Source: Lutibacter flavus
GTDB lineage: Bacteria; Bacteroidota; Bacteroidia; Flavobacteriales; Flavobacteriaceae
DNA length: 64,000 bases
Reading direction: 5' to 3'
Assembly (NCBI RefSeq): GCF_900188355.1
Contig: NZ_FZNX01000007.1
Location: forward strand, 62,001 to 126,000
The notes under the pieces are model-generated. The model had not been told where the DNA came from. It did no database searches and worked only from the letters and a program-made list of their open reading frames with translations. A program made the position numbers and the translations under genes. Within the stretch, counting starts at the first letter, position 1, and the number at the start of each line of letters is the position of its first letter. Positions 39,781-61,027 of this stretch are shown here, piece by piece.

Positions 39781-39843
39781 CAAAATTCATGATAATTAAC
39801 TCAGGTGATTTGTCTTAAAGGAAGTGTAATTTGTTCAAAAAGG
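39781..39843 (-). promoter_or_regulatory. LytTR-like direct-repeat operator and -7 box, site 1
   Basis: tttgtcttaaagg (39809) and tttgttcaaaaagg (39830) repeat at exactly 21 bp. The gene-strand -7 box GAATTTTG lies at 39781-39788, 20 bp from the operator. It serves the DUF5916 gene. Confidence 0.7.
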
Positions 39844-39897
39844 ATTATTGTATAAATATTGTTTGTTTATATATTTATTTAACAAGTCCTAAAATAA

Positions 39898-41112
39898 CTA
39901 TACAGGTTTATACGTTAATTTTTTAAATTTATAATTTTCATTCAAATTCGGAAGGAAAAAGCACCCTATGCCTAGGATAGGAAGAAATGAGCATAGTTGA
40001 TATACAAAATATATTGAGGTTTCATCAGCTAGAACGCCTAATAATGTTGATCCAATGGCTGCAATTCCAAAAGCAAAACCGTAAAAAAGTCCTGAGATCA
40101 TTCCGAGTTTATGTGGAACCAATTCTTGTGCATAAGATATGATAGCTGGAAAAGCCGATGACATTATTAAACCAATAATAATTATTAAAACATCCGTATA
40201 AAAAAGATTAGCATATGGTAACATTAGACAAAATGGTGCTGCTCCTAAAACTGAAAACCATATAATATATATACGCCCAAATTTATCCCCTAACGGACCT
40301 CCTATTAAAGTACCAATAACATAGGAAAAAAGATAAATCGACATATGAATTTGTGCTTGTTGTATTGTTAGATTAAACTTCTCAATTAAATAAAAGCTAT
40401 AATATGTAGACAAACTTGCAGCATATATAAATTTAGAAAAAATTATGGTCAATAAAACCCCCAATACTAATTGTATTTTTCTTTTCGGAAAGTTATTGAC
40501 TGCATTCGTTAAAATTAACCTCTTAGATTGGTTTGATAAAATATGTTGTTTATACCAGTGTGAAATTTTTTTCAGAAAGATAAAACCAATAAACGAAGGT
40601 AGAATTAAGACAATAATTAACTTTTGAGAATAAGGTAAAACAATTAATGCTACCATTAATGGAGCAATAGCAGAACCCAAATTACCTCCAATTTGAAATA
40701 TAGATTGTGCTACCCCAATTTTACCACCGGAAGCTAGATTGGCAATACGGCTTGATTCTGGATGAAAAATAGCAGAACCTATACCAATTAAAATACAAGA
40801 AGCTATTATTAAAGAAAATCCATTTGCATAAGCTAACAATACGACACCAACCGTTGAAAACACTAACCCATATATTTGAGAATGAATTTTTGGTGATTTA
40901 TCAGTATAATAACCAATTAAAGGTTGCAAAACAGAAGCACTAAATTGATATGCAAATGTAATAAACCCAACTTGTAAAAATGAAAGTTCATAATTTTGTT
41001 TTAACAAAGGATAAACTGCTGGTATAATCCCTTGGAGAAAATCATTAACGAGATGAGAAAAACTAATAAAATAAAGAATTTTAAAAGTTGTTTTAGAAAT
41101 TTTAGGTTCCAT
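39898..41112 (-). CDS. MFS transporter, fosmidomycin-resistance (Fsr) type
   Basis: A 404-residue protein with 12 membrane helices in two halves. HLVNDFLQGIIPAVYPLLKQ in helix 1 and GIGSAIFHPESSRIANLASG after helix 4 are the hallmarks of the Fsr group. A central cytosolic loop (about 190-205) separates the halves. Fsr exporters remove fosmidomycin and other small molecules; the natural substrate is unknown. It has a 160-bp upstream gap to the DUF5916 operator on one side, and the GNAT gene follows on the other. Confidence 0.9.
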   Translation of the reverse strand: MEPKISKTTFKILYFISFSHLVNDFLQGIIPAVYPLLKQNYELSFLQVGFITFAYQFSASVLQPLIGYYTDKSPKIHSQIYGLVFSTVGVVLLAYANGFSLIIASCILIGIGSAIFHPESSRIANLASGGKIGVAQSIFQIGGNLGSAIAPLMVALIVLPYSQKLIIVLILPSFIGFIFLKKISHWYKQHILSNQSKRLILTNAVNNFPKRKIQLVLGVLLTIIFSKFIYAASLSTYYSFYLIEKFNLTIQQAQIHMSIYLFSYVIGTLIGGPLGDKFGRIYIIWFSVLGAAPFCLMLPYANLFYTDVLIIIIGLIMSSAFPAIISYAQELVPHKLGMISGLFYGFAFGIAAIGSTLLGVLADETSIYFVYQLCSFLPILGIGCFFLPNLNENYKFKKLTYKPV

Positions 41113-41153
41113 TATTTAATAAATGAATATTATGAAGTGAGTTTTAAAAATAT

Positions 41154-41660
41154 TCATGATTTCAATTCAAATTTTCTCTCAATTAAATTTTTACCAAAAG
41201 AATTGGTATTTAACTCTTCGGTAAGTCTATATCCATGTTTTGTATATAAAGCCGTAGCGGTACCAAGCTCATGAGTTGTCCATAAATAAGATGAATCATA
41301 GCCGCATTTCATATAAAAATCCATATACAGATTCATCAATAATTTTCCTAGTCCAATGCCGCGATATTCCTTTTCTAAATAAAAATATCGTAACTGAGCA
41401 GTATTCTTTTCTCTATGTTGAAGTACTAATGAACCAATAATTTTGTTGTTATGTTCACATATCCAAATTCTATCTTTAACGGGGTTGTAATTGGAGTAAA
41501 ATTCGAAGATTCCTTGAGCTACATAAGCTTCAAAAGAAACACCATGGTTATATTCTTCAGAATAAATTACTCCATGTTTATGAATAATGTAACCTAAATC
41601 TCCAGGTTTTAGATTGGTTTTAATTTTTATATCTTTTAAAATTGGTGATTGATGTATCAT
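41154..41660 (-). CDS. GNAT N-acetyltransferase
   Basis: 168 residues. The acetyl-CoA-binding motif A is RYFYLEKEYRGIGLGKLLMN (about 90-110), preceded by IIGSLVLQHRE. The terminal strand-helix ALYTKHGYRLTEE is typical. It resembles the acetyltransferase half of MarR-GNAT fusions, without the MarR half. The substrate is unknown. It lies 41 bp upstream of the MFS gene and may be cotranscribed. Confidence 0.88.
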   Translation of the reverse strand: MIHQSPILKDIKIKTNLKPGDLGYIIHKHGVIYSEEYNHGVSFEAYVAQGIFEFYSNYNPVKDRIWICEHNNKIIGSLVLQHREKNTAQLRYFYLEKEYRGIGLGKLLMNLYMDFYMKCGYDSSYLWTTHELGTATALYTKHGYRLTEELNTNSFGKNLIERKFELKS

Positions 41661-41723
41661 TTTTTGTGTTTGTTTTTAATCATTGAAATAGCTTTTATCT
41701 CAATGGGTTGGATATAATAGGTT

Positions 41724-41840
41724 AGTATGAGAAAAGTTGCGGTTGCAAAACCATAATTTTCCGATATTTTCGTTTCGTTTAAACGTCTGTCGGATTACTC
41801 TAATCAGTATATTCAGTAATTTTTCTCAGATAGTGTTGGC
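41724..41840 (-). repeat. attC-like inverted-repeat element, copy F
   Basis: Left arm tatgagaaaagttgcgg (about 41726-41742) pairs with cagtaatttttctcaga (41814-41830), mostly with G.T wobbles on the + strand. The right end tgttggc stops 8 bp from the stop codon of the GNAT gene at 41849. Confidence 0.6.
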
Positions 41841-41848
41841 TGAAGTTT

Positions 41849-42292
41849 TTACTTTTTTAACTCCATATGTAAAGTAGGGTAAGGTTTTCCAGAAGAATCC
41901 AATTCAGAACGCCCTATTGTTTCAAATCCGCAGTGCTTGTAAAATCCAACAGCTTGTTCATTCTGTTCATTCACGTCAACTTTACTTACATTAAATTTGT
42001 CAATAGAATAGTTTAATAATGCTTTACCAATACTTTTTCCTCTATATCCTGAATGAATAAATAGCATTTCTAAATTCTGTTCAGCAACACCAAGGAAAGC
42101 AATAATTTTTTTATCATTATTCCTGATGCATCGTAATTCAACAGCGTCTAAATATGTGTTTAAAATAAGTGATTTAAAATATTCAATATCTTTTTCTCGT
42201 AAAAAGTAATGTGTGGCCCTAACTGAGGACTCCCATACATCTACCACTTCTTTATACTCCGATTTGTTTATTTTATCTATTTCGTGTTTCAT
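41849..42292 (-). CDS. GNAT N-acetyltransferase
   Basis: 147 residues. Motif A is MLFIHSGYRGKSIGKALLNY (about 75-94) with the terminal AVGFYKHCGFETIGRSELD. The N-terminal WESSVRATHYFLREKDIEYF matches the YjaB/PhnO-like acyltransferase group. The substrate is unknown. It is a single-gene unit bounded by element F downstream and a dead gene upstream. Confidence 0.9.
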   Translation of the reverse strand: MKHEIDKINKSEYKEVVDVWESSVRATHYFLREKDIEYFKSLILNTYLDAVELRCIRNNDKKIIAFLGVAEQNLEMLFIHSGYRGKSIGKALLNYSIDKFNVSKVDVNEQNEQAVGFYKHCGFETIGRSELDSSGKPYPTLHMELKK

Positions 42293-42325
42293 TTTTTTAA
42301 TTGTAAATAAACATTAATGATAATC

Positions 42326-42540
42326 TTAATCAGGTGCAACCCAATCCAGCACCTGCTTTGGCATAATTACACCTTCATTAAGGTTATAGTTTTGAATTCT
42401 TCCAACTTCACTTTTAAACCAATCTGAAAAATCACTTTTATCATTTTGAAATTTCTCAGAAAAATTTTGATTATTAGCCTCTGTGTAGACCATAATTTCA
42501 AAGTCTTTTTTGTCTTCTTTGAGATACCAGCTCTCTTTTG
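42326..42540 (-). pseudogene. Truncated paralogue of the protein encoded at 57719-58063
   Basis: Read from about 42540 down to the stop at 42326, the frame gives KESWYLKEDKKDFEIMVYTE, then QNFSEKFQNDKSDFSDWFK and NYNLNEGVIMPKQVLDW. This is clearly the C-terminal two-thirds of the 114-residue protein at 57719-58063. The N-terminal third is missing and replaced by another gene's start, so no Met begins this frame. The short open frame at 42367-42561 is a different frame and not a gene. Confidence 0.85.
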
Positions 42541-42759
42541 AGTAACTGTTCTTCCTTCCATTATATTTACGAAAATGTGAATGAAATCATCTTTTGAACC
42601 TCCAATGTTGTAGTGTTCAAAAGGGTTAATTCTTACTTTAATATCACCTTCATCAAATAGGTTAGTAGATTATACTGTATTAAATACTTTTTACATAATC
42701 TTCTTTGGAGATTTAAGATTCAGTATATTTTCGGAACAATCAATTACAAAATGTGGCAT
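42533..42759 (-). pseudogene. 5-carboxymethyl-2-hydroxymuconate isomerase fragment
   Basis: From the ATG at 42759 the frame reads MPHFVIDCSENILNLKSP, two stop codons appear (after KKIM and after FNTV, where Gln and Glu codons are expected), then STNLFDEGDIKVRINPFEHY and FVNIMEGRTVTQK. This is the N-terminal half of a tautomerase-fold CHMI protein. At ctcttttg (42533-42540) it joins directly to the truncated paralogue, giving a chimeric dead gene. Confidence 0.8.
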
Positions 42760-42788
42760 AATTTATATGTATTTATTTATGAAATGGG

Positions 42789-44009
42789 TTAGTTTTTCTT
42801 GAGTTTGTTGATTTCATTTTTAAAATCTTCCTCTTGTCCTAATTTTAATTTTTTTGAAAGTTTAATTGCCAATTTATAGGTCTCTATAGCTTTTTTTTCT
42901 TGTTTTGTTTTTTCGTATAATTTAGCCAAATTAGTCATGAGACCAATATATTTAGGATATGCTTCTATAGCTCTATTAAGCACAACAATGGCTCCTAAAT
43001 CATTTTCTTCTTTTAACAATTTAAATGCAATGTCTACATAATTACTTACAGGTCTTCTAGCATGTTTTCCATATTTGTTCATCAACTCACGCTCTCCTTT
43101 TAAAAATGCCAAATCGCTATAGTCATTGATTAATTCTTCAGGAGCGATTAAATCTGAAAACACAAACTTTAAGCCATAATAATTTAGCAATAATCTAGAA
43201 GTGTCATGGTCTTCATCTCCAACTTCTTCAAGTTTCCATCGTAGATTTTGGGGAGGATTCTTATCAATAACTTGAACGTATCGTTTGAGTTCCTGCTGCA
43301 TTCCCCAGCCATCACCACCACCAATTCCAAAATATATAGCTTTTTTCAAGTTGGAATTTGATTTGAAAAATCCTTTAGCTTTCTCCGTCATTTCTTCTTT
43401 GTTCCACCAAAGCGCTGGAGCCTGAATAATGAATGCGTCAAAAATATCTGGCTTTTCCATAAGTGCGTATGTGCTAAATAAACCTCCAAACGAATGTCCT
43501 TCTAAAAGACGGTATGGGTGAGTTCGAAAGTGTGATTCTACGAAAGGAATTAATTCTTCTTCCAAAAACTGAAGAAATTTAGGGGCACCTCCACTTTGCG
43601 TTATTCCTGCATCACCTACTCCTCCATAAACATCTTGCCCTGCATTTGAGGGTGTTAAATCTCTTGACCTATCTAAACTCTCTATACCAACAATAATCAT
43701 TGGAGGAATAATTCCTGAGTCTGTTAATAATTCTACGGTACCAATTTCATGTTTTATGTTTCCTAAACCATCTAAAAGATAAAGTACAGGATAGTTAGCA
43801 CTACTATTTTCATATCCAAGAGGTAATGAAATAATAACGGGACGTTGTTCTTGTAATATTTTAGATTTTAAAATATACTGAGTTCCTAATCCTAAAAGTT
43901 TATTGCCTTTAGTTAACTCAATTTTTTCTGATATTTGGGCACTTACATTAAATTGCAAGAAGATAATGAAAAGGACTGAAAGTGAATTTTTGAATATTTT
44001 TGTGTTCAT
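42789..44009 (-). CDS. Secreted esterase (enterochelin esterase/EstD-like) with TPR tail
   Basis: A 406-residue protein with a signal peptide (1-24, ending VSA). An alpha/beta-hydrolase of the putative-esterase (PF00756) family spans about 45-290, with nucleophile motif LLEGHSFGGLF near residue 170, an upstream acidic loop, and a His in EVGDEDHDTSRLL. The C-terminal part (about 325-400) has two to three TPR helices (AIVVLNRAIEAYPKYIGLMT). It is probably periplasmic and hydrolyses an ester. It is a single gene with about 240 bp of AT-rich noncoding DNA before it. Confidence 0.88.
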   Translation of the reverse strand: MNTKIFKNSLSVLFIIFLQFNVSAQISEKIELTKGNKLLGLGTQYILKSKILQEQRPVIISLPLGYENSSANYPVLYLLDGLGNIKHEIGTVELLTDSGIIPPMIIVGIESLDRSRDLTPSNAGQDVYGGVGDAGITQSGGAPKFLQFLEEELIPFVESHFRTHPYRLLEGHSFGGLFSTYALMEKPDIFDAFIIQAPALWWNKEEMTEKAKGFFKSNSNLKKAIYFGIGGGDGWGMQQELKRYVQVIDKNPPQNLRWKLEEVGDEDHDTSRLLLNYYGLKFVFSDLIAPEELINDYSDLAFLKGERELMNKYGKHARRPVSNYVDIAFKLLKEENDLGAIVVLNRAIEAYPKYIGLMTNLAKLYEKTKQEKKAIETYKLAIKLSKKLKLGQEEDFKNEINKLKKN

Positions 44010-44246
44010 TTTTATATATTTAATTATAGTTTTGTGTGTTGTATACTAATGACTTTCTTCAATTAAAAATGTTACCATTAAACAAAATTTAATTTATTTT
44101 AGATTTTTATCTATATTTTTCTAATCTGCTTTAAAAAAATCAAATGCTTAAAAAAGTTTTATTTTTAAAAAATAATTTTACTAGTGTTTAAACTTAGGAT
44201 GAATACTACGAGGATTTTAAGATATTATTTGTGCAAATAGTTAATT

Positions 44247-44708: not shown

Positions 44709-44808
44709 TATTTTATTGACTTATTAAATAGACCCTCTATAATCAATACATTATGTCTTAGCGGCTTATTCTTCATTTTCAATAGTATACAACTTTTTAC
44801 AACAATGA

Positions 44809-45864
44809 TTATTGAATTTCTGCTCTGTAAACGCCACCCTTCCATAATCCAAGATATAATACGGTTTTTCCATTTTCTTGTCTTTGTAACATATCTCTTG
44901 TTCCGCCAAAAATCAATGGAATATTAGGTGTTATGATACTCCAAGTCTCGCCATTATCTTCTGAAATATGTAACATTAAAGGTTGGGGTCTCTCAAAGTT
45001 TTTATCCCAGCTCGCCGCGATTATTTTTTCTGAATCTAAGTTGTCATAAACCAAACCATAATAAAACCTGGCAGATACTGTATCATTAGAATATATATTT
45101 TTCCATGAATTACCATTGTCCTCTGTTAGTAAAATTCCATCTTCGCAACCCAATATTATTCTATTAGAATCATTATTGAATGCGAATTTCTCTACCGTAC
45201 TCGGTGAAGGAAGAACATTTATCCATTGATTAATTTCCTCTCTATCAGAATCTAATTGAACAATTACTTGACTTTCTATTGCATTTTGACCTCCTGCCCA
45301 AACTTGATTATTAGCAGGATTAATCTCAAGTGCCCACAAACCCTTAGTGAATGCATTCCAGAAACCGAATTGAATTACCCAAGTTTTACCTTCATCAAAT
45401 GAACTTGCAATTACTCCTTTACCAGATGCGAGTAGCTCGTTTGAACTAGAATTATACCTTAACTCGAAAATAATTTCAGGTGTTTCTCCCCCAAAGTTAC
45501 TTTCAACCACGGACCAACTCTGTCCGAAATCTAATGATTTTAGTAGTTGAGGATTCTGAAATTGATCATCATCTGTAACTGAACATACAATTGTATTTGA
45601 ATCAATAATTGAAATTGCAATTACATTCTTTTTTTGTAATCCCATTAAAGTCCAATTTGAAGAAAAATCACTTTTGTATACACCTTGGTCTGTAGCAGCA
45701 ATTAATATTGAATCAGTAGCAATTATTTGATGTACTATTTTTCCTTCTAATCCCAAGGATTCAAAAGAAATGATTTCGTCTTGTGGGTTATCTGGCATGT
45801 TCTCAACTTCTTTAGAGCATGAAAAAAGAGTTAATATGAGACTGATGACTATAATTTTTTTCAT
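44809..45864 (-). CDS. Lipoprotein with BNR/sialidase-like beta-propeller repeats
   Basis: A 351-residue protein with a lipobox LFSCSKE (Cys at about 16). Repeated blades carry Asp-box-like motifs: KSLDFGQSWSVV, SSFDEGKTWVIQ, LTEDNGNSWKNI and ISEDNGETWSII, the pattern of YCF48/BNR propellers. No catalytic residues of sialidase are apparent, so a binding role on the cell surface is more likely. The promoter has LytTR-like site 3. An (ATT)n tract lies just before the start codon. Confidence 0.82.
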   Translation of the reverse strand: MKKIIVISLILTLFSCSKEVENMPDNPQDEIISFESLGLEGKIVHQIIATDSILIAATDQGVYKSDFSSNWTLMGLQKKNVIAISIIDSNTIVCSVTDDDQFQNPQLLKSLDFGQSWSVVESNFGGETPEIIFELRYNSSSNELLASGKGVIASSFDEGKTWVIQFGFWNAFTKGLWALEINPANNQVWAGGQNAIESQVIVQLDSDREEINQWINVLPSPSTVEKFAFNNDSNRIILGCEDGILLTEDNGNSWKNIYSNDTVSARFYYGLVYDNLDSEKIIAASWDKNFERPQPLMLHISEDNGETWSIITPNIPLIFGGTRDMLQRQENGKTVLYLGLWKGGVYRAEIQ

Positions 45865-45999: not shown

Positions 46000-46062
46000 C
46001 AAAAATAAGATGCAAAGCGTGAATTTTTTTGTTCGAAAAGCAGTAAGAATTGTTCAAAAAGG
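46000..46062 (-). promoter_or_regulatory. LytTR-like direct-repeat operator and -7 box, site 3
   Basis: tttgttcgaaaag (46028) and attgttcaaaaagg (46049) repeat at 21 bp. The gene-strand -7 box TATTTTTG lies at 46000-46007, 20 bp away, a full match to TAnnTTTG. It serves the BNR lipoprotein. The rest of 46063-46305 shows no gene. Confidence 0.75.
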
Positions 46063-46305
46063 ATTTTTATTCAAATCAAGTAAATGTTATAATCAACAAA
46101 CTATACTCTAATCAACGGACTAATTATAAGACTGTAAATAACCTTAACATTCATATGAAAACTTGAAACAATTGAGTGTGCAAGGTTTTTTATTTACGTT
46201 ATCTAATGGGTATTCTTTTGAAATCTCACTTGATCGCTCATAGGGTTTGACCTAATCTTCAGGAACTAAATTTTTGATGGCCAGTAATAAGTATTTTTAT
46301 ATGAA

Positions 46306-47205
46306 TTAATATTTGGGCCTGAATGTTTCAATAATCTTAGCATCTACCCAAAATATATCTACATTTTCGTAGTTGTTTGTACCCATATTCCTGCTGAAGA
46401 AAAGATATTTTCCATCCGGCGTCACACTCGCAGATGCTTCCCATGCTTCCGTATTTATTTTGTCTGCCAAATTAATGGCATCACCCCACGAGCCATCTTG
46501 CTGTTTAAAGCTAATATAAATATCAGAACTACCATATCCATCTTCTCTTTTAGCATCCCATATCAAATAGGATTCGTCGGGTGCAATGAATGGATGACTC
46601 AGATTTGTTCCCGTATTAATTGCTTTGCTCAATGCTTTGGGTTTTTCATATTTTTCATCTATGATTCGTGAATAACGAATTGGAAAGTTTGGATTATTTT
46701 TTTTATAGGTGTCAAAATAATATGTTCCATTAGCAGAAGACGAAAGCCTCATGATGAACATATCTGAGCTATCTTTAAATGGAGCTTCAAGATGTTTTAA
46801 GTCAGACCATCCTGTTTTGGTTCGTTCCATATATCGTCCGCCCAAATGCATCGTCTTGCCATCCGAAGAGAACATGGGCTGACCTACCCGTTTTGATACA
46901 AAAGACTCGACCCATTGATTATTTTTATATTGAAAAACAACAAATGTAGATTTCTCGTATTTCCCACCACTTCTAATAAAATAGAACTCTTTCATATCGG
47001 GCGTGAAAGTTCCGCTATATTCATAATGCTCTGTAGAAACAATACCTGGAGCGAAAGATTCAGGTATTAAACCCGGTGGCCTTTGTCCAAGATAGGGGCT
47101 TTCTATAGTTGGTGAATCACTATCTTTTAAATTCTGTTTTTTAGTATTGCATGCATTTAAAAATAGTATCAATACAAGTGTTAAAATAAAATAGGCTTTT
47201 TTCAT
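46306..47205 (-). CDS. PD40/TolB-like propeller lipoprotein, paralogue A
   Basis: A 299-residue protein with a lipobox (LFLNACN, Cys near 19). A six-bladed WD40-like PD40 propeller covers about 60-290, with repeats such as [35 protein letters not shown] and [13 protein letters not shown]. It is about 60 percent similar by eye to the protein at 62090-63001, including the shared [20 protein letters not shown] start. It probably binds a partner in the periplasm. Downstream of the 4-TM gene in the transcript from site 4. Confidence 0.88.
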
Positions 47206-47239: not shown

Positions 47240-47641
47240 TTAGATTTCATTATTTTTTGTTGCACTTTTTAGCATTATGCTCAACAACATTAAAAATGCT
47301 AAACCGAATCCTAAAACACCAATATTAATTCCGAAAAGTGTTTTTTCACTCCCATCTAAATATTTCATGGAGCCACCATAATATTCTTGTAAAATAAATG
47401 CTAATAAGAAGCCTCCTGTAATGAGTAAACTTAAAATAGTACTGATTTTGGTCTCCTTTTTTACCCAAACAAGCCATAAGCAAAGAATACCTATCCCTGA
47501 ATTTGTAAGTAATTGCCATACTTCATGGATGCGAACATGTGGTGTCCAATCTGGATTAAAAACATGAGTGGCATTAATCTCCAAATAGGGAACTATGACA
47601 GCATAAAGAATGACGCTGAATGTAATGGCAAAATTTTTCAT
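47240..47641 (-). CDS. Small 4-TM membrane protein, paralogue A
   Basis: 133 residues with four membrane helices (about 4-22, 45-65, 70-88, 103-124) and a conserved loop HVFNPDWTPHVRIHEVWQL between helices 1 and 2. It is nearly identical in layout to the protein at 55733-56134, and a third truncated copy lies at 55092-55205. The family is unknown to me. It lies between a serine hydrolase and a PD40 gene, the same setting in which its paralogue is found. Confidence 0.75.
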   Translation of the reverse strand: MKNFAITFSVILYAVIVPYLEINATHVFNPDWTPHVRIHEVWQLLTNSGIGILCLWLVWVKKETKISTILSLLITGGFLLAFILQEYYGGSMKYLDGSEKTLFGINIGVLGFGLAFLMLLSIMLKSATKNNEI

Positions 47642-47740
47642 TTCTTCTTGATTATTGTTTTTACTTTGCTAAAGTACCCGTCTTTATATCTAAATTCTAA
47701 AACATTTATATTTTCCTTTTGAATTTGAAAGTTTCTATTC

Positions 47741-47861
47741 CTCGTGTATGAGTAGTAGCGGATTTCTACTAACTAACTTTTTAGTTTTACCCAGACCTTA
47801 GTTTTATGTTTATTCTTTTCGTTCTAGCACCTTAACTGCTATTACTTATACACACTGTTAC
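47741..47861 (-). repeat. attC-like inverted-repeat element, copy A
   Basis: Left arm gtgtatgagtagtagcgg (47744-47761) and right arm ctgctattacttatacac (47836-47853) pair with only G.T wobbles on the + strand. The right end actgtta stops 15 bp from the stop codon of the serine hydrolase at 47876. Confidence 0.7.
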
Positions 47862-47875
47862 AAAACATAATATTA

Positions 47876-48976
47876 TTAATCTCCTAATACCATACTTGCG
47901 ATTTGTGAATTAATTTGATTTGGTCTGACTATCCAATTAAAAGCACCATTGGTTAACAAAATAACTGTAACTTTTTTATTCGTTTTTTCGTTCCAATAAT
48001 GACGAAAGGATGAAATTCCAGCACCTCCATGACCAACCATTTTGTAATTATCTTGTAACCTGTATGCTTCCCAACCTAATCCAAAGTAACCGTCTTTTCC
48101 ATCAGTTAATTTTACAGGAGTCCAGATTTTATCAAGTTGTTCTTTGGTTAAGATTTCCTCATTTTGCAAATATTGAAACCATATTATCAAATCATTGATT
48201 TTAATATTCAATCCAGCTCCAGCATACATTGGTGAAGAATAATTTAATGGAAACATTTCCAGGCTATTATTAACATTCTGATAGCAAGTTACTCTGTTAG
48301 GAATAACTTTTTTAAATCCACCATATTTGGCCGAATTCAATCCGAATTTATCGAAATACTGTTCTTGCATATATGATTCAAAATCTTGGTTTGCAAGTTT
48401 TTCTATGATTATGCGAATTAATAAAAAGCCAGTGGCATTGTATTTCGATTCAGTTCCAGACTTTGAACTAAATGGCTTGTCTTTTAATGCATCAATAACA
48501 AACTTTTCATTTTCTGGAGCTAGGTAGATTTGATAGTCTATCTGGTCTGGAATTTCAGAAGTATGGGATAACAATTGTTTCAAAGTTAATTTACGCCATG
48601 ATTCAGGTAAGTCTTTTCTCTTCGGAAGAAAATCTTCAACGGTTTCATTTACATTCCGATTGTATATGTTTAATAGATTATGGAGCGCGATGGAACTAAA
48701 TAATTTAGAAATTGAAGCTACTGGAAATGAATTCTCCAATGTCATTGGTACTTGAAGTTGAGTATTAGCTAAACCAAATGATTTTTCATGGACTACTTCA
48801 TTGTCTATTAGTATCGCATAGTTAAGCCCAACTATTTTTAAGCTATCAATCATACTTTCCAAATAATCGTCTGTCTTATTAAAAACTTCTTTATCTACGG
48901 ATATTGATTTTTCTTGACAATAAAATCTTGTAAACAAAGTGTTTGCTAAAAATATTATTAGGACAATTTTTTTCAT
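47876..48976 (-). CDS. Secreted class-C beta-lactamase-like serine hydrolase, altered YxN motif
   Basis: A 366-residue protein with a signal peptide (1-20). The nucleophile motif SISK lies in FPVASISKLF (about 92), and the HxG-type motif VGHGGAG is near 322. The second motif reads KYNATGF, so where relatives have Y-x-N there is Y-N-A and the catalytic Asn is lost. It may act on other substrates or be impaired. It has the LytTR-like site 4 and a 270-nt leader that contains the remains of another gene. Confidence 0.88.
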   Translation of the reverse strand: MKKIVLIIFLANTLFTRFYCQEKSISVDKEVFNKTDDYLESMIDSLKIVGLNYAILIDNEVVHEKSFGLANTQLQVPMTLENSFPVASISKLFSSIALHNLLNIYNRNVNETVEDFLPKRKDLPESWRKLTLKQLLSHTSEIPDQIDYQIYLAPENEKFVIDALKDKPFSSKSGTESKYNATGFLLIRIIIEKLANQDFESYMQEQYFDKFGLNSAKYGGFKKVIPNRVTCYQNVNNSLEMFPLNYSSPMYAGAGLNIKINDLIIWFQYLQNEEILTKEQLDKIWTPVKLTDGKDGYFGLGWEAYRLQDNYKMVGHGGAGISSFRHYWNEKTNKKVTVILLTNGAFNWIVRPNQINSQIASMVLGD

Positions 48977-49251: not shown

Positions 49252-49314
49252 CAAAGATGAGGTGTCATCCTCGATTTTTTTTGTCCGAGAAGCAGTAAAA
49301 TTTGTTCTAAAAGG
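49252..49314 (-). promoter_or_regulatory. LytTR-like direct-repeat operator and -7 box, site 4
   Basis: tttgtccgagaag (49280) and tttgttctaaaagg (49301) repeat at 21 bp. The gene-strand -7-like box CATCTTTG lies at 49252-49259, 20 bp away. It serves the dead small gene and the hydrolase at 47876. Confidence 0.7.
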
Positions 49315-49350
49315 ATTTTACTTTCTATTATGAAATCATCTTTTTCAATT

Positions 49351-49505
49351 CTACCAATATTCGAAAATTTTAGAGATCCTACCTTCTCTAAACTCAATAA
49401 GAGTCATATTAATATCTCCTTCTACAGTTTTAACATTCTCCTTTTTAATATATCGCTTATACACCGCAATTGCAATAAGTCCAACTATCTTACTATAGGT
49501 TGAAA
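49351..49505 (-). pseudogene. Possible remnant of an NTF2/SnoaL-like gene
   Basis: The minus-strand frame ending at 49351 reads TVEGDINMTLIEFREGRISK, then IFEYW and a stop. This resembles the last two strands of NTF2/SnoaL-like proteins. Upstream the frame is short and has no start. It begins about 40 bp after LytTR-like site 5, which may once have driven it. Weak evidence. Confidence 0.3.
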
Positions 49506-49542: not shown

Positions 49543-49604
49543 CAAAGATGAATTGTAAACGTGATTATATTAGTTCAAAAAGCAATAAGATTTGTTCAAA
49601 AAGG
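49543..49604 (-). promoter_or_regulatory. LytTR-like direct-repeat operator and -7 box, site 5
   Basis: ttagttcaaaaag (49570) and tttgttcaaaaagg (49591) repeat at 21 bp. The gene-strand -7-like box CATCTTTG lies at 49543-49550, 19 bp away. No intact gene starts close to it. Confidence 0.65.
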
Positions 49605-49689
49605 ATTTTACTTTAATTAAAGAAAAGAATGGTGATAGACAAACAAACACTAATAATATATGTAATAAATAATGAGGAATAAAAAAAAT

Positions 49690-50118: not shown

Positions 50119-50132
50119 ATTTATTTTTGGCT

Positions 50133-50255
50133 GTCTTGTATATGAAAAGTAGTGGGCTTTTATGCACTAATTTTCGGTTTATAACTAACCTTTATTTTAT
50201 TAATTATCTTTAGTTTAAGCCCTAAAACCGCTATTACTTTTACACCTTGTTGTGT
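50133..50255 (-). repeat. attC-like inverted-repeat element, copy B
   Basis: Left arm cttgtatatgaaaagtagtg (50135-50154) pairs with ccgctattacttttacacc (50228-50246). The right end ttgttgtg overlaps the stop codon of the panE-like gene at 50240. Confidence 0.65.
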
Positions 50256-51250: not shown

Positions 51251-51832
51251 TTATATTTTACTAATTTCTTTTCTAATTCTACTTAATGAACTGTCAGTAA
51301 TACCTAGAAAGGAAGCTATAACTTTGAGAGGAACGTTTTGGAAAATATTAGATTGCTGCTTTAAAAGATTTAAATACCTTGTTTCTGCTTTTTTACTTGC
51401 CATTTCAATTACTCTATCGTTTAATTTAGAATAATTTATAACAAATAAAAGCCTACTGAACTCCCTGAATTCAGGAATATTATGAAAGTTTTTCTGTACG
51501 TTTTCTAGGCTTGTTTCCCAGAATGAGCAGTGAGTTATAGTTTGATAGATTACTTTTGTAGGTTGTTTTTTGAAAAAAGATAAAAAGTCATTTACAAAGC
51601 AAGGGGCTGAATAAATGTTGGTTGTAATTTCTTGATTATCTTCATTTAGAATATATGAACGCATATATCCTTTCTCTAAAAAATATGTTTTTGTACTAAT
51701 AGCATCTTTATTTAGTAACGTTGTATTCTTATCTAATGTAAAACCACAAAATGTTTCCGTAATTTTCCCCACAATTTCTTTTTGAATAGGAAACAAAGAA
51801 TGGAAATAATTATTAAGTTTTGATTTGTCCAT
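51251..51832 (-). CDS. Crp/Fnr-family transcriptional regulator
   Basis: 193 residues with a cyclic-nucleotide-binding-like beta-barrel (about 20-115, FLEKGYMRSYILNEDNQEIT) and a C-terminal HTH (about 150-190, PLKVIASFLGITDSSLSRIRK). There are no cysteines for an Fe-S cluster in Fnr positions. This is the short type abundant in flavobacteria. The signal and targets are unknown. Gap of 63 bp to the PanE-like gene start. Confidence 0.9.
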   Translation of the reverse strand: MDKSKLNNYFHSLFPIQKEIVGKITETFCGFTLDKNTTLLNKDAISTKTYFLEKGYMRSYILNEDNQEITTNIYSAPCFVNDFLSFFKKQPTKVIYQTITHCSFWETSLENVQKNFHNIPEFREFSRLLFVINYSKLNDRVIEMASKKAETRYLNLLKQQSNIFQNVPLKVIASFLGITDSSLSRIRKEISKI

Positions 51833-53710: not shown

Positions 53711-53841
53711 ACAACGGTCTTGAATATGAAAAGTAGCGGAATTTTAAGCGCAAACTTTTCAGCTTGGTACTGACCTTTAAATTATAAAATTCATTTTCGT
53801 TTTAGCACTTAAACTGCTATTTTTCATATACAATATTAGCC
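53711..53841 (-). repeat. attC-like inverted-repeat element, copy C
   Basis: Left arm ttgaatatgaaaagtagcgg (53720-53739) pairs with ctgctatttttcatatacaa (53814-53833), with mostly G.T wobbles on the + strand. The left end has acaacg, the right end attagcc. It stops 4 bp from the stop codon of the S41 peptidase at 53846. This is the clearest copy. Confidence 0.75.
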
Positions 53842-55682: not shown

Positions 55683-55732
55683 AAATAATAATGATTTTTT
55701 AAAATAAATTAACTGTGCTTTAATAATTATAA

Positions 55733-56134
55733 CTAGCTGATTTTAGGCTTTTGCTTAGCGGCTATTAGGGTAAGTAATAGAAGTATAAATGCTATTCCAA
55801 AGCCTAACACGCCAATATTAATTCCTAACAATGTTTTCTCACTTCCATCCAGGTATTTCATTGAGCCTCCATAAAAATCTTGCAGTATATAAGCCAGTAA
55901 AAACCCACCTATGATGATCAAACTTAAAACAGTACTGATTTTGGTTTCATTTTTCACCCAAACCAACCATAAACAAAGTATACCTATAGCTGAATTGGTA
56001 ATGAGCTGCCAAACTTCATGGATACGAACATGAGGTGTCCAATCTGGATTAAAAACATGCGTGTTGTTAATTTCTAGAAATGGAACAGTTACAGCATAAA
56101 GAATGATACTGAATGTGATTATTGATTTTTTCAT
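55733..56134 (-). CDS. Small 4-TM membrane protein, paralogue B
   Basis: 133 residues, with four membrane helices and the loop HVFNPDWTPHVRIHEVWQL. It is about 80 percent identical to the protein at 47240-47641, and the DNA is also clearly alike, so the duplication is recent relative to the flanking decay. It sits 21 bp after the hydrolase gene at 56156, and the paralogue also follows a hydrolase gene. Confidence 0.78.
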   Translation of the reverse strand: MKKSIITFSIILYAVTVPFLEINNTHVFNPDWTPHVRIHEVWQLITNSAIGILCLWLVWVKNETKISTVLSLIIIGGFLLAYILQDFYGGSMKYLDGSEKTLLGINIGVLGFGIAFILLLLTLIAAKQKPKIS

Positions 56135-56155
56135 TTTTAAATTTGTATTAAGTTT

Positions 56156-57322
56156 TTATTGTATAAGTTTATATAAATCCTCTTCAAATTTTTTATAGGT
56201 TTCTTCATACCTGTTATTACTTAAGATCACAAGAAATTCATTAGTCTCCGGTAAATATAATATCATTGTTTTAGCACCTCCCCAACTACCATTATGATAC
56301 ACCCATTTACCTTTGCTTTCGGTATCGTAAATAGCCACACCAAATCCATACTTTTTAGAAACTTCATCTGTAGAAAACATCAATTGTTTGCTTTCTTCAG
56401 TGATTAAAATGTTATTTCTTAACGCTTGTTTCCATTTTTCAAGATCCAGAATAGAAGTATAAATACCTGTGTCACCTATAATGGCTTTCATCCAATTTAG
56501 GTGCTTGTGGTTTTTATCTTCATTTGCTCTTTGATGTCTTTTTTTACGTTTGTTGTAGGTATGGCCAATGGCAACATTCTCGTCTTGCTCTAGATTATTG
56601 TCAACAGCGCTGACTTTTGAAGATTGCATTCCTGCTGGAGTAAAAATATATTCCTTTATATACTCTGCGTAGGATTGTTGACTTACTTTTTCAATAATTA
56701 CACCTAATACAACATAACCTGTGTTATCATATTCATAACGGCCTCCTGGTTCAAAACTTAACTTCAAATTTAATTTATTTAAAAGATCAACTACATCTTG
56801 AGCGGTAGCCATTTTTTTTCGGTTCCAATGCTTCTTGTTATAAAATAACTTCTGATAGTCTGGAAGTCCTGATTGATGTCTTAGTAAATGTTCTACAGTA
56901 ATATGCTGATATGGAAAATCAGGAATTATCTCTTGTACTTTAGTATTGTAACGAATCAATTGTTTTTCGACCAACTGAGTGATGGCTAGTGCCGTAAATT
57001 GTTTAGAACAAGACGCTAATTCAAATACTGTTGCCTCGTTAAGGGGTTTCCTAGATTCAAAGTCAATATATCCATAACTCCCGGTAAAAATGATGGAATC
57101 ATTTTTAGAATATAACACATTACCATTAAATCCTTTTGATTGATGAACCTTTGCTAAACTATCTATACGTTGTGCTATTTGAGCATTCAAAACGTTCGAC
57201 ATTAGAGTGCTTAACATATAAATTCCTATTAGTAATTTAATTTTAAAATTCGTTTTATTATTTATTTTATCAATTGGATTTGTATCAAGGATATCAGTGA
57301 ATATATTTAGTGATTTTTCCAT
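56156..57322 (-). CDS. Class-C beta-lactamase-like serine hydrolase
   Basis: 388 residues. A cytosolic lead of about 27 residues precedes a signal-anchor (about 28-48, LLIGIYMLSTLMSNVLNA). The catalytic motifs are complete: SCSK in FELASCSKQF (about 103), Y-D-N in YEYDNTGY (about 205) and HNG in VYHNGSWGG (about 345). Such enzymes include D-aminopeptidases, esterases and penicillin-binding-like proteins. A shorter start at Met36 would give an ordinary signal peptide. Part of the operon read from site 2. Confidence 0.9.
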   Translation of the reverse strand: MEKSLNIFTDILDTNPIDKINNKTNFKIKLLIGIYMLSTLMSNVLNAQIAQRIDSLAKVHQSKGFNGNVLYSKNDSIIFTGSYGYIDFESRKPLNEATVFELASCSKQFTALAITQLVEKQLIRYNTKVQEIIPDFPYQHITVEHLLRHQSGLPDYQKLFYNKKHWNRKKMATAQDVVDLLNKLNLKLSFEPGGRYEYDNTGYVVLGVIIEKVSQQSYAEYIKEYIFTPAGMQSSKVSAVDNNLEQDENVAIGHTYNKRKKRHQRANEDKNHKHLNWMKAIIGDTGIYTSILDLEKWKQALRNNILITEESKQLMFSTDEVSKKYGFGVAIYDTESKGKWVYHNGSWGGAKTMILYLPETNEFLVILSNNRYEETYKKFEEDLYKLIQ

Positions 57323-57413
57323 AATGTTTAATCTTTTTGTATCGATATTCTGCTTCTTTTTTAATTTTTATAATTTGTTGTCTTATTTATATCATGATGC
57401 TTTTAAGCCTACA

Positions 57414-57722
57414 TTAATTGCATTTGTACAATTTTTCAGTTGCCTTTTTAAGATCTGCCAAAGGTAAAAATTGATCTGTTATAGTTAAGATTGCATGTAA
57501 GTTATCTCGTAACCGATTTAATTTAATTTCGCCTGGTTTGATTGATGTTTGCAATAAATGAATAGACATATCAGCTAAAAGAAGGCGTTGTTTATCTAAC
57601 CAAGCTTCATCTTCTTGTTTTGCTGGATGATTTAAGTAACTAGTTTCAACTTTACTGTGTAATTCCCAGCTAGTGTCAATTATTTTTTGTCGTTCTTCTT
57701 TAGTAATTGTTTTATATATCAT
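57414..57722 (-). CDS. Small helical protein of unknown family
   Basis: 102 residues, no signal peptide, several amphipathic helices (ERQKIIDTSWELHSKVE, then LDKQRLLLADMSIHLLQ). A dead paralogue lies at 49050-49185, also next to a hydrolase. Its start overlaps the stop of the upstream gene by 4 bp (ATGA), which means translational coupling. Function unknown. Confidence 0.7.
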   Translation of the reverse strand: MIYKTITKEERQKIIDTSWELHSKVETSYLNHPAKQEDEAWLDKQRLLLADMSIHLLQTSIKPGEIKLNRLRDNLHAILTITDQFLPLADLKKATEKLYKCN

Positions 57723-58063
57723 TGTGATTCATCCCAATCTAATACAAGCTTTGGCATCTTTACAGCTTCATTGAGATTATAATTTTGAATTCTAGTGACT
57801 TCGCTTTTAAACCAATCTGAAAATTCACTTTTATCATTTTGAAATTTTTCAGAAAAACCCTGGCTATTAGCTTCTGTATAGACCATAACTTCGAAATCGT
57901 TTTCATTTTCTTTGAGATACCAACTCTCTTTGGTTACTCCAATTCTTTCATGCATTTTTGTAAACTCACAATTTCTAGTTGTATTAACCTCTTCAACAAA
58001 CTTTAACCATTCTTGCACCATATCTTTTGAAAGCGGAAAACTGTAGACGTATTTTAACTTCAT
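57719..58063 (-). CDS. Small protein, possibly ferredoxin-fold (DUF6176-like)
   Basis: 114 residues, soluble, with two beta-alpha-beta halves (KLKYVYSFPLSKDMVQEWLK, then NDFEVMVYTEANSQGFSEKF), which suggests a dimeric alpha-beta barrel such as DUF6176. The assignment is by pattern only. A truncated copy lies at 42326-42540. It lies 2 bp after the hydrolase gene at 58066 and overlaps the following gene. Confidence 0.65.
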   Translation of the reverse strand: MKLKYVYSFPLSKDMVQEWLKFVEEVNTTRNCEFTKMHERIGVTKESWYLKENENDFEVMVYTEANSQGFSEKFQNDKSEFSDWFKSEVTRIQNYNLNEAVKMPKLVLDWDESQ

Positions 58064-58065
58064 AA

Positions 58066-59565
58066 TTAATTTTTAAGTGATTCTATTCTTTCTTGAGAAT
58101 TCTTGCACCAATTACAATTATTTTCAGATTTTAATTCTAAAGCTTTACTAAAGGCCTTAATTGCATTTTCTTTCTGATTATATTCAAAATAAGCATCGCC
58201 AAGGGAATCATAAAGATTGCCATCATTTGGAAACAACTCTACATTTAATTTCAATAGTTCCAATCCCCAAGCTGGATTCCCCTCTTTTGCAATACGTTTG
58301 AAACCAATTCGGTTGAATACTGCTTTGTCATTGAATTTAGAACCTAAATTTTCATCTAAAAACGATACTAATTTACTTGCTTTATCAGTGTCATGAGTAC
58401 TTATAAAATCATATACTAATTCGTATGACAATTTTGTTACAGGTTTTGGCGTAAAATTAGAGTCAAAAACCATGTTTCCAATATTCCAAGATACATCTTC
58501 AGAATCTCTATTTAGAATGGTGTTTGACAATACAATAACAACCAGATCATCTTCAACATACCTGATGAAATTGGCAAAATAAATACCGTTACTACCATTA
58601 TGTGTTACTATTTTTGTTCCATTTTTACTTTTAAATATTGCCCATCCATAACCATAATGAGATGATCCTTCATCATTTTCTACAACATGTGGTGTTTCAA
58701 TCATTTTTAATGACTTATTACTTAAAACTTTGTTATGTTGCAAAGCGAGGTGCCATTTATAAAGATCTTCTGTAGTTGAATAAATATCTCCCTTTCCAAT
58801 ACTATACCAATGGTTATTATTATAAGGAAGATGTTCCTGTGTTATTCCCCAATCCATCCAAACGCCATCTGTGTAATTAAAATAATACCCATGAGAAAGT
58901 TGCTCACTATTAAATGAGATACTTTTATAACCTGTCTTATTCATTGATAGAGGATCCCAAAAATTTTCTTTTAAAAAAGTAGTATAATCTTGTTTAGAGA
59001 CTAACTCTATAATAGCCGCGAGCATGATATAATTTGCATTAGCATATTGATGATTTGTTCCAAGTGTTGATTGCAATTCTGCCTCAAAGAATTCTTTTAG
59101 AAACTGTTCCTTACTAGCTTCATCATATCTAAATCCGCCAGTTCTCGGTGAAACACCTGTTGTATGCGTTAGTAATTGATGAATAGTAATATCTTTTTTA
59201 TCAATAGGGGCTTCATTGTAAAATAGACCAATTTTATCTGAAGTATTAAGTTTTCCTTGTTCAACCAATTTTAAAATAGCTGCAGCTGTAAATTGTTTAG
59301 TTACTGAACCAATATTGAAAATTGATGACGACGTATTGACAATTTTCTTCTTTCTATCAGACCAACCATAGCCTTTTGATAAAATAACATCTCCTTTTTT
59401 GGCAACTAGCACGGATGCTGAATAGCCATTGGCTACACTATTATTTAAATAGGTGTCAATTTTAGCTTTAAGTTCTTCAACACTTTGTTTTTCTTGACCA
59501 TATAAAGTATATGTTCCAAATACAAATAGAATAATAAGGGCAATGGGAAAAAGATTTTTTTTCAT
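58066..59565 (-). CDS. Secreted serine hydrolase (class-C beta-lactamase-like) with TPR tail
   Basis: A 499-residue protein with a signal peptide (1-23). Motifs: SVTK in FNIGSVTKQF (about 88), Y-A-N in HQYANANYI (about 183), HNG in VTHNGSNGI (about 322). A C-terminal extension (about 425-495) has two TPR units (NLYDSLGDAYFEYNQKENAI). It follows the lipoprotein hydrolase gene by 6 bp. It may process a cell-wall peptide, ester or small-molecule amide; the substrate is unknown. Confidence 0.9.
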   Translation of the reverse strand: MKKNLFPIALIILFVFGTYTLYGQEKQSVEELKAKIDTYLNNSVANGYSASVLVAKKGDVILSKGYGWSDRKKKIVNTSSSIFNIGSVTKQFTAAAILKLVEQGKLNTSDKIGLFYNEAPIDKKDITIHQLLTHTTGVSPRTGGFRYDEASKEQFLKEFFEAELQSTLGTNHQYANANYIMLAAIIELVSKQDYTTFLKENFWDPLSMNKTGYKSISFNSEQLSHGYYFNYTDGVWMDWGITQEHLPYNNNHWYSIGKGDIYSTTEDLYKWHLALQHNKVLSNKSLKMIETPHVVENDEGSSHYGYGWAIFKSKNGTKIVTHNGSNGIYFANFIRYVEDDLVVIVLSNTILNRDSEDVSWNIGNMVFDSNFTPKPVTKLSYELVYDFISTHDTDKASKLVSFLDENLGSKFNDKAVFNRIGFKRIAKEGNPAWGLELLKLNVELFPNDGNLYDSLGDAYFEYNQKENAIKAFSKALELKSENNCNWCKNSQERIESLKN

Positions 59566-59571
59566 GATTAT

Positions 59572-60936
59572 TTAACTATTTTTATTCAAGTTATTCATTT
59601 TAATATAATTCCAAGTATTGCCACCTTGCTCAAAAACCATTTGTTTGCCATCAGCAGAAAAAGTGAATGATATAGACTCTGCGTACATTTGCTCTAAAAC
59701 AAACCGATTTTCTCCTTTATAAATTAAAGGAGCCTTAAATTCGTTTTTTATAAAATTAATTAAAGTATTATTTTCTTGTATAAATACAGACTTATCGTTT
59801 GGATCATTTTGAGAAATATAAACACCAACAAATTTCTTCAACTCATTTTCTGATATTGCTACAGGTGCATCTCCTAGAAACAATTTTAGTATTTCAGTAT
59901 ATATTTCGTTAATATCAATTTTAGAACCGTTTGAAATTAATGTAAAAGATAATTTATCCTTAGAAAAATAAATTGAAGTAGCTCTGAATTCATCAATGCG
60001 TCCACGATGCCCAAATCCCTGTCTGTCATTAGTTGTATATCGAAAAAGCCCCATTCCATATCTGTCTTTTATAGTTTTCATTAATGTTAGGCTTTCTGTT
60101 GAGAGTACTTTCCCTGTAAGCAAGCCTTCAAAAAAACTATTTAGATTTTTTGGTGTTGATACAATTGAGCCAGTTCCTTTAGCGCTAGACAAATCTGTTT
60201 CAGGAAATTCATTCCATTTCTTATCATATTTGTATGAATATGATTCATTATCATTTATATTTATTCCTTTTCCTGAGTATGTATTGTTTAAGTTGAGTGG
60301 CTTGCAAATTTTCTCTTGCAAAAGGTTTTCATAAGAAGTGTTATACGTTTTCTCAAGAATTAGTGCTAATAAAAAGTAATTAGAATTACTATATTCTCCT
60401 TTACTATTTGGCTCAAAGTCGCTTTCATACTTAGAAATTTTAGATAACATTTCTGTAGATGATATATATTTAGTGCGATTGTCAAAAAACCATTTATCTT
60501 TTGTAAAACTGTGAATACCGCTTCTGTGTTGCAATAACTGAGCAATGGTTATCTTATTCGCGTTTTTTACATTGGTAAAATAGTACCCTATCGTTTTGTT
60601 TAAATCTAGCTTATTTTCTTCAATAGCCTTAAAAATTAACGTTGCTGTAAATGATTTAGTAACAGAACCTATACGATATTTGGTATCTGTACTCGCTTTC
60701 TTGTTTGTTTTAACATCACTAAATCCAACAGTATTTTCATATACAGTTTCTCCATTTTGAGATAGTATAATACTCCCCATAAATTCATCATTCTTATCAT
60801 AAGCATCTAATAAGCTGTCGATTTTAACTTGATAAGTATCAGCTTTTTGCTTTATTGATTGAGTAGATTTTTTGTTTTGTGAACAAGAAGATAGTAGTGT
60901 TATGAATGCTACTATTATTAAAGTTGATTTTTTCAT
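59572..60936 (-). CDS. Serine hydrolase lipoprotein (class-C beta-lactamase-like)
   Basis: 454 residues. Lipobox ITLLSSCSQ (Cys at about 18). Motifs are complete: SVTK in YRIGSVTKSF (about 93), Y-S-N in GEYSNSNYF (about 188), HRG in FGHRGRIDEF (about 308). The last 90 residues form an extra beta domain (LKKFVGVYIS) like DUF3471. It is the first gene of a tight operon running to 55221, behind LytTR-like site 2. It is anchored in the membrane facing the periplasm. Confidence 0.9.
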   Translation of the reverse strand: MKKSTLIIVAFITLLSSCSQNKKSTQSIKQKADTYQVKIDSLLDAYDKNDEFMGSIILSQNGETVYENTVGFSDVKTNKKASTDTKYRIGSVTKSFTATLIFKAIEENKLDLNKTIGYYFTNVKNANKITIAQLLQHRSGIHSFTKDKWFFDNRTKYISSTEMLSKISKYESDFEPNSKGEYSNSNYFLLALILEKTYNTSYENLLQEKICKPLNLNNTYSGKGININDNESYSYKYDKKWNEFPETDLSSAKGTGSIVSTPKNLNSFFEGLLTGKVLSTESLTLMKTIKDRYGMGLFRYTTNDRQGFGHRGRIDEFRATSIYFSKDKLSFTLISNGSKIDINEIYTEILKLFLGDAPVAISENELKKFVGVYISQNDPNDKSVFIQENNTLINFIKNEFKAPLIYKGENRFVLEQMYAESISFTFSADGKQMVFEQGGNTWNYIKMNNLNKNS

Positions 60937-60964
60937 TTTTTGATTGACTTATAAATGTATGTCA

Positions 60965-61027
60965 CAAATGTCTCTTAAAATACTTGAGATAATTTGTCTT
61001 AAATGGAATTAGATTTGTTCGAAAAGA
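60965..61027 (-). promoter_or_regulatory. LytTR-like direct-repeat operator and -7 box, site 2
   Basis: tttgtcttaaatgg (60993) and tttgttcgaaaaga (61014) repeat at 21 bp. The gene-strand -7-like box GACATTTG lies at 60965-60972, 20 bp away, 29 bp before the ATG of the hydrolase operon. Confidence 0.72.

What the first reader, a model, noticed from the sequence alone, without database searches (positions are those of the whole stretch)
39781..61027. Shared direct-repeat operator with exact 21-bp period at five promoters: a LytTR-type regulon of secreted hydrolases
Seen: a TTTGTTC(N)AAAAG-like half-site is repeated at exactly 21 bp at 39809/39830, 46028/46049, 49280/49301, 49570/49591 and 60993/61014. 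In each case a (T/C/G)AnnTTTG -7-like box follows toward the gene at 20 bp (19 bp at one site). No separate -33 box fills the gap. Known: LytTR proteins bind two 9-bp direct repeats separated by 12-13 bp and activate promoters lacking a good -35. Inference: a LytTR regulator switches on a DUF5916 outer-membrane protein, a BNR lipoprotein and two sets of serine hydrolases. The LytTR pair at 15.6-17.5 kb is a candidate, not a proven, partner.
Basis: partly seen in the sequence, partly recalled or inferred. Interest (0 to 1): 0.82.

Follow-up and report, generated by a model that had tools for sequence, protein, structure and literature searches.

The report
AraC-type regulon with direct-repeat operators
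Five promoters in this bacterial genome stretch carry the same paired DNA tag, and comparison with related bacteria ties the tag to a nearby AraC-family switch protein rather than to the LytTR protein first suspected.

Summary
In detail: five minus-strand direct repeats with 21-bp period lie at the stated places (shuffle mean 0.09); the genome has seven, all within 32 kb. The LytTR reading fails. The seventh site lies 2 nt behind an AraC-family gene, 7.5 kb past the window. In 78 of 80 relatives of that gene the same two 15-bp repeats recur downstream; in 79 of 82 such sites a TTTG box follows at exactly 24 nt. A matrix trained only on relatives scores the window sites 32-40 bits (4-Mb background maximum 9.4). 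Motif-first, 38 of 39 motif-bearing genomes hold the AraC gene; 1 of 342 genomes without it has the motif. Three genomes with LytTR orthologs lack the motif. A variable half-site base co-varies best with recognition-helix residue 216 among 189 variable residues. The architecture is that of an AraC/XylS class II activator (inferred). In other genera such sites precede orthologs of window hydrolases, so the hydrolase regulon is supported. Binding and ligand are untested. New member of a known kind.

The parts
39809..39844 (-). Operator 1: two 15-bp direct repeats (distal 39830-39844, proximal 39809-39823)
   Evidence: 32.4 bits with a matrix trained only on other species
39781..39788 (-). -7-like box GAATTTTG, TTTG 24 nt after the repeat; predicted start site near 39776
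   Evidence: start site inferred by taking the -7 box as -12..-5 (PMC9723704 passage)
37549..39774 (-). DUF5916 protein downstream of operator 1; true start probably ATG 39738 (signal-peptide-like MHRRLLGN...), giving a 5' UTR of about 38 nt
   Evidence: PF19313, 1.5e-20; start choice read from the sequence
46028..46063 (-). Operator 2 (distal 46049-46063, proximal 46028-46042)
   Evidence: 38.3 bits
46000..46007 (-). -7 box TATTTTTG, TTTG 24 nt after the repeat
44809..45864 (-). BNR/sortilin-type repeat protein downstream of operator 2
49280..49315 (-). Operator 3 (distal 49301-49315, proximal 49280-49294)
   Evidence: 38.7 bits
49252..49259 (-). -7-like box CATCTTTG, TTTG 24 nt after the repeat
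49570..49605 (-). Operator 4, tandem to operator 3 (distal 49591-49605, proximal 49570-49584)
   Evidence: 32.8 bits
49543..49550 (-). -7-like box CATCTTTG, TTTG 23 nt after the repeat
47876..48976 (-). Serine hydrolase (PF00144 beta-lactamase fold), next gene downstream of operators 3 and 4
   Evidence: 1e-44
60993..61028 (-). Operator 5 (distal 61014-61028, proximal 60993-61007)
   Evidence: 39.6 bits
60965..60972 (-). -7-like box GACATTTG, TTTG 24 nt after the repeat; predicted start near 60960
59572..60936 (-). Lipoprotein-like serine hydrolase (PF00144) downstream of operator 5; an 84%-identical gene has the same kind of operator in Psychroserpens jangbogonensis (G101)
58066..59565 (-). 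Serine hydrolase with TPR, 6 nt behind 59572-60936, probably co-transcribed; its 70%-identical relative in G308 has its own operator

Best explanation
The repeats are the operator of an AraC/XylS-family activator encoded at C2:133509-134363 (window-equivalent 71509-72363, beyond the window). Two monomers are proposed to sit side by side, each gripping one 15-bp half-site with its two helix-turn-helix motifs. The half-sites lie at about -68 to -54 and -47 to -33 of housekeeping-sigma promoters that have a -7 box but no -33 TTG, so the bound pair takes the place of the -33 element and recruits RNA polymerase (class II activation). The ancestral target is the operon directly behind the regulator gene (DUF5367, anthrone-oxygenase-like, NmrA). 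In this genome six further sites stand in front of other genes of the same neighbourhood, including serine hydrolases, a BNR protein and a DUF5916 protein; at least three of them (46028, 49280, 49570) descend from one another by duplication. Shown: motif, geometry, linkage, co-variation. Inferred: binding, activation, dimer, inducing ligand.
For: Site 1-2 nt behind the araC stop in the window's genome, G043 and G046. Sites in 78 of 80 ortholog loci; TTTG at exactly 24 nt in 79 of 82 sites; -33 TTG in 0 of 82. Matrix from 73 of the 80 loci scores all seven own sites 32.2-50.7 bits; next hit in 124 kb apart from half-register shifts is 6.0, Markov 4-Mb maximum 9.4. 28 of 29 fetched motif loci hold AraC. 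Residue 216 (first recognition helix) is rank 1 of 189 variable columns for the 12th base of the proximal half-site (5 of 7 base changes fall on the same branches, p 1.2e-6); residue 266 (second recognition helix) is rank 1 of 189 for the 12th base of the distal half-site (2 of 3, p 9.5e-4, not significant after correction). HTH_18 at 1.1e-16; the predicted model has a beta-rich N-domain plus two HTHs and its best Foldseek matches are ToxT and Rns, about 1e-9.
Against: No binding or expression data. 17 of 55 genomes with the AraC gene have no motif at the strict pattern; G043 and G046 carry a GAATAAA variant, the other 15 were not looked at one by one. In the 100-genome scan, four genomes without a close AraC relative also had one match each (G014, G020, G051, G065) against two reversed-control hits. 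The own araC site has T at the 12th base of the proximal half although residue 216 is F, an exception to the co-variation. The two base positions tested were picked. Genes whose orthologs carry a site elsewhere (61164-61973, 42789-44009) have none of their own here. The -7 boxes at four of five window sites depart from TAnnTTTG. Full-length Foldseek TM-scores are low (about 0.33).
Confidence: 0.94

Rival explanations
1. The LytTR response regulator at 16689-17456 with its kinase at 15596-16684 binds the repeats.
For: Some LytTR regulators use direct repeats of 9 bp with 12 bp between, i.e. a 21-bp period (PMC6193735 passages); the pair lies in the window.
Against: No relative of LytTR or the kinase within about 1.5 kb of the 29 fetched motif loci. 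LytTR orthologs at 60-81% in G008, G029 and G035, which have no motif. Repeat unit 15 bp, not 9; the proximal copy reaches -33 instead of ending upstream of -35. The nearest site is 22 kb from the LytTR gene, while one site is 2 nt from the araC gene.
Confidence: 0.02
2. Another local regulator binds the sites: the cNMP-binding (Crp-like) protein at 51251-51832 or the second, 189-residue AraC-family protein at C2:138135-138704.
For: Both lie in or near the cluster.
Against: Neither has a relative at E <= 1e-10 in the 29 motif loci; Crp-type sites are palindromes, not direct repeats (recalled).
Confidence: 0.02
3. Most of the window's sites are inert relics of duplicated promoter segments, and only the copy behind araC works.
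For: Extended similarity of three window sites; decayed gene copies in the region; imperfect -7 boxes.
Against: The half-site bases and the 24-nt spacing are kept at 39809 and 60993, which are not in the extended 77-nt family; such sites stand before an 84%-identical hydrolase in Psychroserpens and before orthologs of other window genes in G308, G317, Flagellimonas and Arenibacter.
Confidence: 0.1

Closest known systems
AraC/XylS-family class II activators (example CphR)
   Same: Two 15-bp direct repeats; CphR's lie at -35 to -69 and overlap the -35 hexamer by two bases (PMC6205950, abstract and passages read), here about -68 to -33; regulator gene next to the target operon.
   Different: Half-site sequence differs (about TCCTTTTnGAACAAA, not TGCA-N6-GGNTA); the promoter is of the Bacteroidota -7 type; here seven clustered sites in one genome.
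ToxT / Rns (full-length AraC-family structures)
   Same: Best structural matches to the predicted model: beta-rich N-terminal domain plus AraC-type double HTH.
   Different: 10-14% identity and low full-length TM-score; no evidence of the same ligand or role.
LytTR-type direct-repeat operators
   Same: Direct repeats with a 21-bp period.
   Different: 9-bp units upstream of -35 (PMC6193735 passages); the motif here is not linked to LytTR genes.

Membership tests
AraC/XylS-family regulator (the protein) | C-terminal AraC-type double HTH domain | tested here: met
   HTH_18 1.1e-16, above the curated cut-off; solved AraC-family DNA-binding domains matched down to 9.1e-11
AraC/XylS-family regulator (the protein) | N-terminal ligand/dimer domain of cupin-like fold | tested here: inconclusive
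   beta-rich in the model; matches include ToxT, Rns, the ExsA regulatory domain and BgaR; no Pfam hit for this part
AraC/XylS class II operator | Two direct half-sites about 21 bp apart, the proximal one reaching the -35 position | tested here: met
   period 21; proximal half ends at about -33 if the -7 box is -12..-5; TTTG at the same distance in 79 of 82 ortholog sites. Start sites themselves were not mapped
AraC/XylS class II operator | Bound and activated by the adjacent regulator | not testable with these tools
   only linkage and co-variation
LytTR regulon | LytTR gene linked to the motif | tested here: not met
   0 of 29 fetched motif loci; orthologs without motif in G008, G029, G035
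LytTR regulon | 9-bp repeats, 11-13 bp apart, upstream of -35 | tested here: not met
   conserved unit is 15 bp with a 6-bp spacer, reaching about -33

The most novel reading that the evidence does not exclude
A portable regulon: across Flavobacteriaceae one AraC-type regulator keeps a cluster of co-regulated genes around it that is reshuffled from genome to genome, partly by duplicating its promoter, and serves to sense and dispose of an unknown (perhaps aromatic or lactone-like) compound; residues 216 and 266 act as a two-position code that sets C or T in the two half-sites.
Probability: 0.3. Interest if true: 0.62.

Novelty: new member of a known kind. Interest (0 to 1): 0.48.

Why it matters
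It pairs a regulator with its operator for a large group of bacteria in which few such pairs are defined (my judgement, not searched exhaustively), and gives a matrix that predicts target genes in other genomes. The number of sites ranges from one to seven per genome and extra sites often lie near the regulator, so it is a usable case of a regulon growing in place. The co-variation at residue 216 (and perhaps 266) gives a directly testable specificity rule for AraC-type proteins.

Tried and rejected
First pattern was misaligned by one base in the second half-site; corrected. Integron-cassette idea: same-strand genes, GNATs and hairpin-like intergenic repeats suggested attC sites. A covariance model of the three repeats found only those three at E <= 0.001, but just 150 of 1,501 first-look candidates were scored; Rfam had no match at gathering scores; no integrase was searched for. 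Not supported, not excluded. LytTR, Crp-like and second AraC proteins as binders: not supported. A special sigma factor: thought unlikely because the ortholog sites mostly carry the housekeeping-type box (58 of 81 begin TA, 79 have TTTG). Literature: DUF5367 gave 0 papers; at least 3 of anthrone oxygenase, DUF1772, NmrA, AraC gave 0; AraC family + Flavobacteriaceae + regulon + binding motif gave 1, whose passages describe XylRA of Vibrio; AraC + direct repeat + 21 bp + class II + XylS gave 0. So I found no published description of this operator in those searches, which cover open-licence PMC papers only.

Dropped rows and parts: one search kept the best 80 of 150 relatives. 7 of 80 loci were left out of matrix training because nothing scored above 12 in the 400 bases behind the gene; 5 of them have a site farther down (L068, L082, L083, L095, L098), 2 have none (L076 and L092, whose held sequence ends 84 and 741 bases behind the gene). 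Of the 3 of 82 sites without TTTG at 24 nt, one (L042:9766) is cut by the end of its contig. I gave 33 of 80 loci to the whole-genome search. One search aligned 42 of the 80 orthologs with the own protein. The co-variation used 98 distinct proteins out of 103 with a site, out of 106 with a readable gene, from 110 loci.
Full report
WHAT IS THERE. The five repeats are real and at the stated coordinates. The genes behind them run on the minus strand, so the motif is best read there: two copies of about TCCTTTTnGAACAAA, 15 bp each, 6 bp apart, period 21. In the window the pattern, drawn from these sites, gives 5 hits against a shuffle mean of 0.09. In the 3.89-Mb genome there are seven good sites: the five, plus C2:128956 and C2:133471 just past the window's end, all on the minus strand within 32 kb; three further hits at 3 mismatches on other contigs look like background (reversed control 1). 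Three of the five window sites are copies of one promoter (70-79% identical over 77 nt).

THE REGULATOR. Site C2:133471 starts 2 nt behind the stop codon of a 284-residue AraC-family gene, with a DUF5367 gene next. In a search of 100 genomes (own plus 99 relatives), only G043 and G046, of other genera of the family, have a close ortholog (61%). None of the 37 same-genus genomes has one; four have matches at 33-39%. In G043 and G046 the same repeat, in a GAATAAA variant, lies 1-2 nt behind the araC stop. A scan of named public genomes kept the best 80 of 150 relatives, at 62-89% identity, mostly Flavobacteriaceae and other Bacteroidota. 78 of these 80 loci have at least one site; in the two without, the held sequence ends 84 and 741 bases behind the gene. 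Across the 82 sites, TTTG lies exactly 24 nt behind the repeat in 79, and no site has a TTG 19-22 nt before the -7 box.

INDEPENDENT TESTS. (a) A matrix trained only on other species (73 of the 80 loci, 68 distinct sites) scores the seven own sites 32.2, 32.4, 32.8, 38.3, 38.7, 39.6 and 50.7 bits. The next hit in 124 kb that is not a half-register shift of a site is 6.0, and 4 Mb of first-order Markov sequence peaks at 9.4. (b) Starting from the motif instead of the gene: of 397 genomes of the family (own included), 39 have the motif, 56 matches in all against 1 reversed-control hit. 38 of the 39 hold the AraC relative at E <= 1e-80, which 55 of the 397 have; among the 342 without it, 1 has the motif (G482). 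Fisher gives 1.5e-38, not corrected for relatedness. The search fetched loci for 29 of the 49 matches outside the own genome: 28 hold AraC within about 1.5 kb; none holds a relative of the window's LytTR, its kinase, the Crp-like protein at 51251-51832 or the second AraC-family protein. The pattern was drawn from ortholog sites loosened to admit own sites, so it knows the motif but not the gene. Against this, 17 of the 55 AraC genomes have no motif at that strictness. In the earlier 100-genome scan with an own-site pattern, G046 was hit at its araC gene, but G014, G020, G051 and G065 had one match each without a close AraC relative, with two reversed-control hits. (c) LytTR orthologs exist in three of 36 same-genus genomes (G008, G029, G035), and these three have no motif. 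(d) Co-variation over 98 distinct proteins: residues 216/266 and the 12th bases of the distal and proximal half-sites fall into F/S with C,C (50), N/G with T,T (16), T/S with C,T (12), Y/S with C,T (11) and six minor classes (9 proteins in all). On a tree from residues 1-190 only, residue 216 is rank 1 of 189 variable columns for the proximal base (5 of 7 base changes on the same branches; p 1.2e-6), and residue 266 rank 1 of 189 for the distal base (2 of 3; p 9.5e-4, which does not survive correction). The two bases were chosen after the look. Aligned to Rob, the two residues fall on the W of the first recognition helix and the second Q of the second one; that the matching MarA/Rob residues touch DNA is recalled, not tested. 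The own araC site is an exception at the proximal base; the other six own sites have C there and fit (read).

HOW IT MOST LIKELY WORKS. Flavobacterial housekeeping promoters have a TAnnTTTG box at -12 to -5 (PMC9723704, passage). With that ruler the half-sites fall at -68 to -54 and -47 to -33. CphR, an AraC/XylS-type activator, uses two 15-bp direct repeats at -35 to -69 that overlap the -35 hexamer by two bases (PMC6205950, abstract and passages). The match in unit length, orientation and position is close. The LytTR autoregulatory repeats of PMC6193735 (passages) are 9 bp, mostly 12 bp apart, with a bias to lie 10 bp upstream of -35. So I read this as a class II AraC-type activator that stands in for the missing -33 contact. 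Activation, dimerisation and ligand are inferred.

THE REGULON. Of 33 ortholog genomes searched whole, 23 have one match, 6 have two or three, 4 have none at that pattern; 37 matches against 3 reversed-control hits. Clusters like the window's recur: G308 has four pattern sites in 26 kb (five by matrix in the stretches read), G317 three in 31 kb (four by matrix), G141 two in 21 kb. Sites stand before: a serine hydrolase 84% identical to 59572-60936 (Psychroserpens jangbogonensis), an esterase 62% identical to 42789-44009 (Flagellimonas beolgyonensis), CHMI-like proteins 75-80% identical to L011:3505-3849 (two Arenibacter), a Lumazine_bd_2 protein 87% identical to 61164-61973 (G308 and G317), a hydrolase 70% identical to 58066-59565 (G308), and, some 330-345 nt downstream of the site, a small protein 71-77% identical to L011:15307-15732 (G308, G141). 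The genes 61164-61973, 42789-44009 and L011:15307-15732 have no site directly in front of them in the window's genome. The shared gene kinds suggest disposal or conversion of a small organic compound; that is a guess.

VERDICT. Observation confirmed; the shared-operator and hydrolase-regulon parts of the interpretation hold; the LytTR part does not. It is a new regulon of a known kind.

Noticed in passing
window 47735-47862, 50129-50254, 53713-53840 (minus strand): Three 126-128-nt hairpin-like repeats near stop codons, about 70-75% identical; attC-like at first sight. A covariance model found only these three at E <= 0.001 in the genome, with 150 of 1,501 candidates scored.
   Followed up: partly
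window 42337-42761: Decayed copies: 42548-42761 is 78% identical to the CHMI-like gene region L011:3638-3851, and 42337-42538 is 83% identical to 57730-57931. The region is rich in duplications.
   Followed up: partly
window about 49341-49500 and L011:3027-3542: The stretch between the tandem operators 3 and 4 holds what looks like the 3' end of the gene that stands upstream of the C2:128956 site (by eye), so a segment with its promoter was probably duplicated.
   Followed up: no
window 46306-47205 and 62090-62992; 47240-47641 and 55733-56134: Paralog pairs: PD40 proteins 52% identical, 133-residue proteins without a Pfam match 85% identical.
   Followed up: no
L095:8034 and 8260, L098:8036 and 8262: Lentiprolixibacter aurantiacus and Flavobacteriaceae bacterium D16 have two tandem operators 226 bp apart before the DUF5367-like gene, recalling 49280/49570.
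   Followed up: no
C2:133509-134363: The araC gene has no close relative in the 37 same-genus genomes tested but is 86-89% identical to genes of other genera, so it was probably acquired laterally or lost in its relatives.
   Followed up: no
L011:9806-12704: Heavy-metal P-type ATPase with a second, short (189 aa) AraC-type protein beside it.
   Followed up: no
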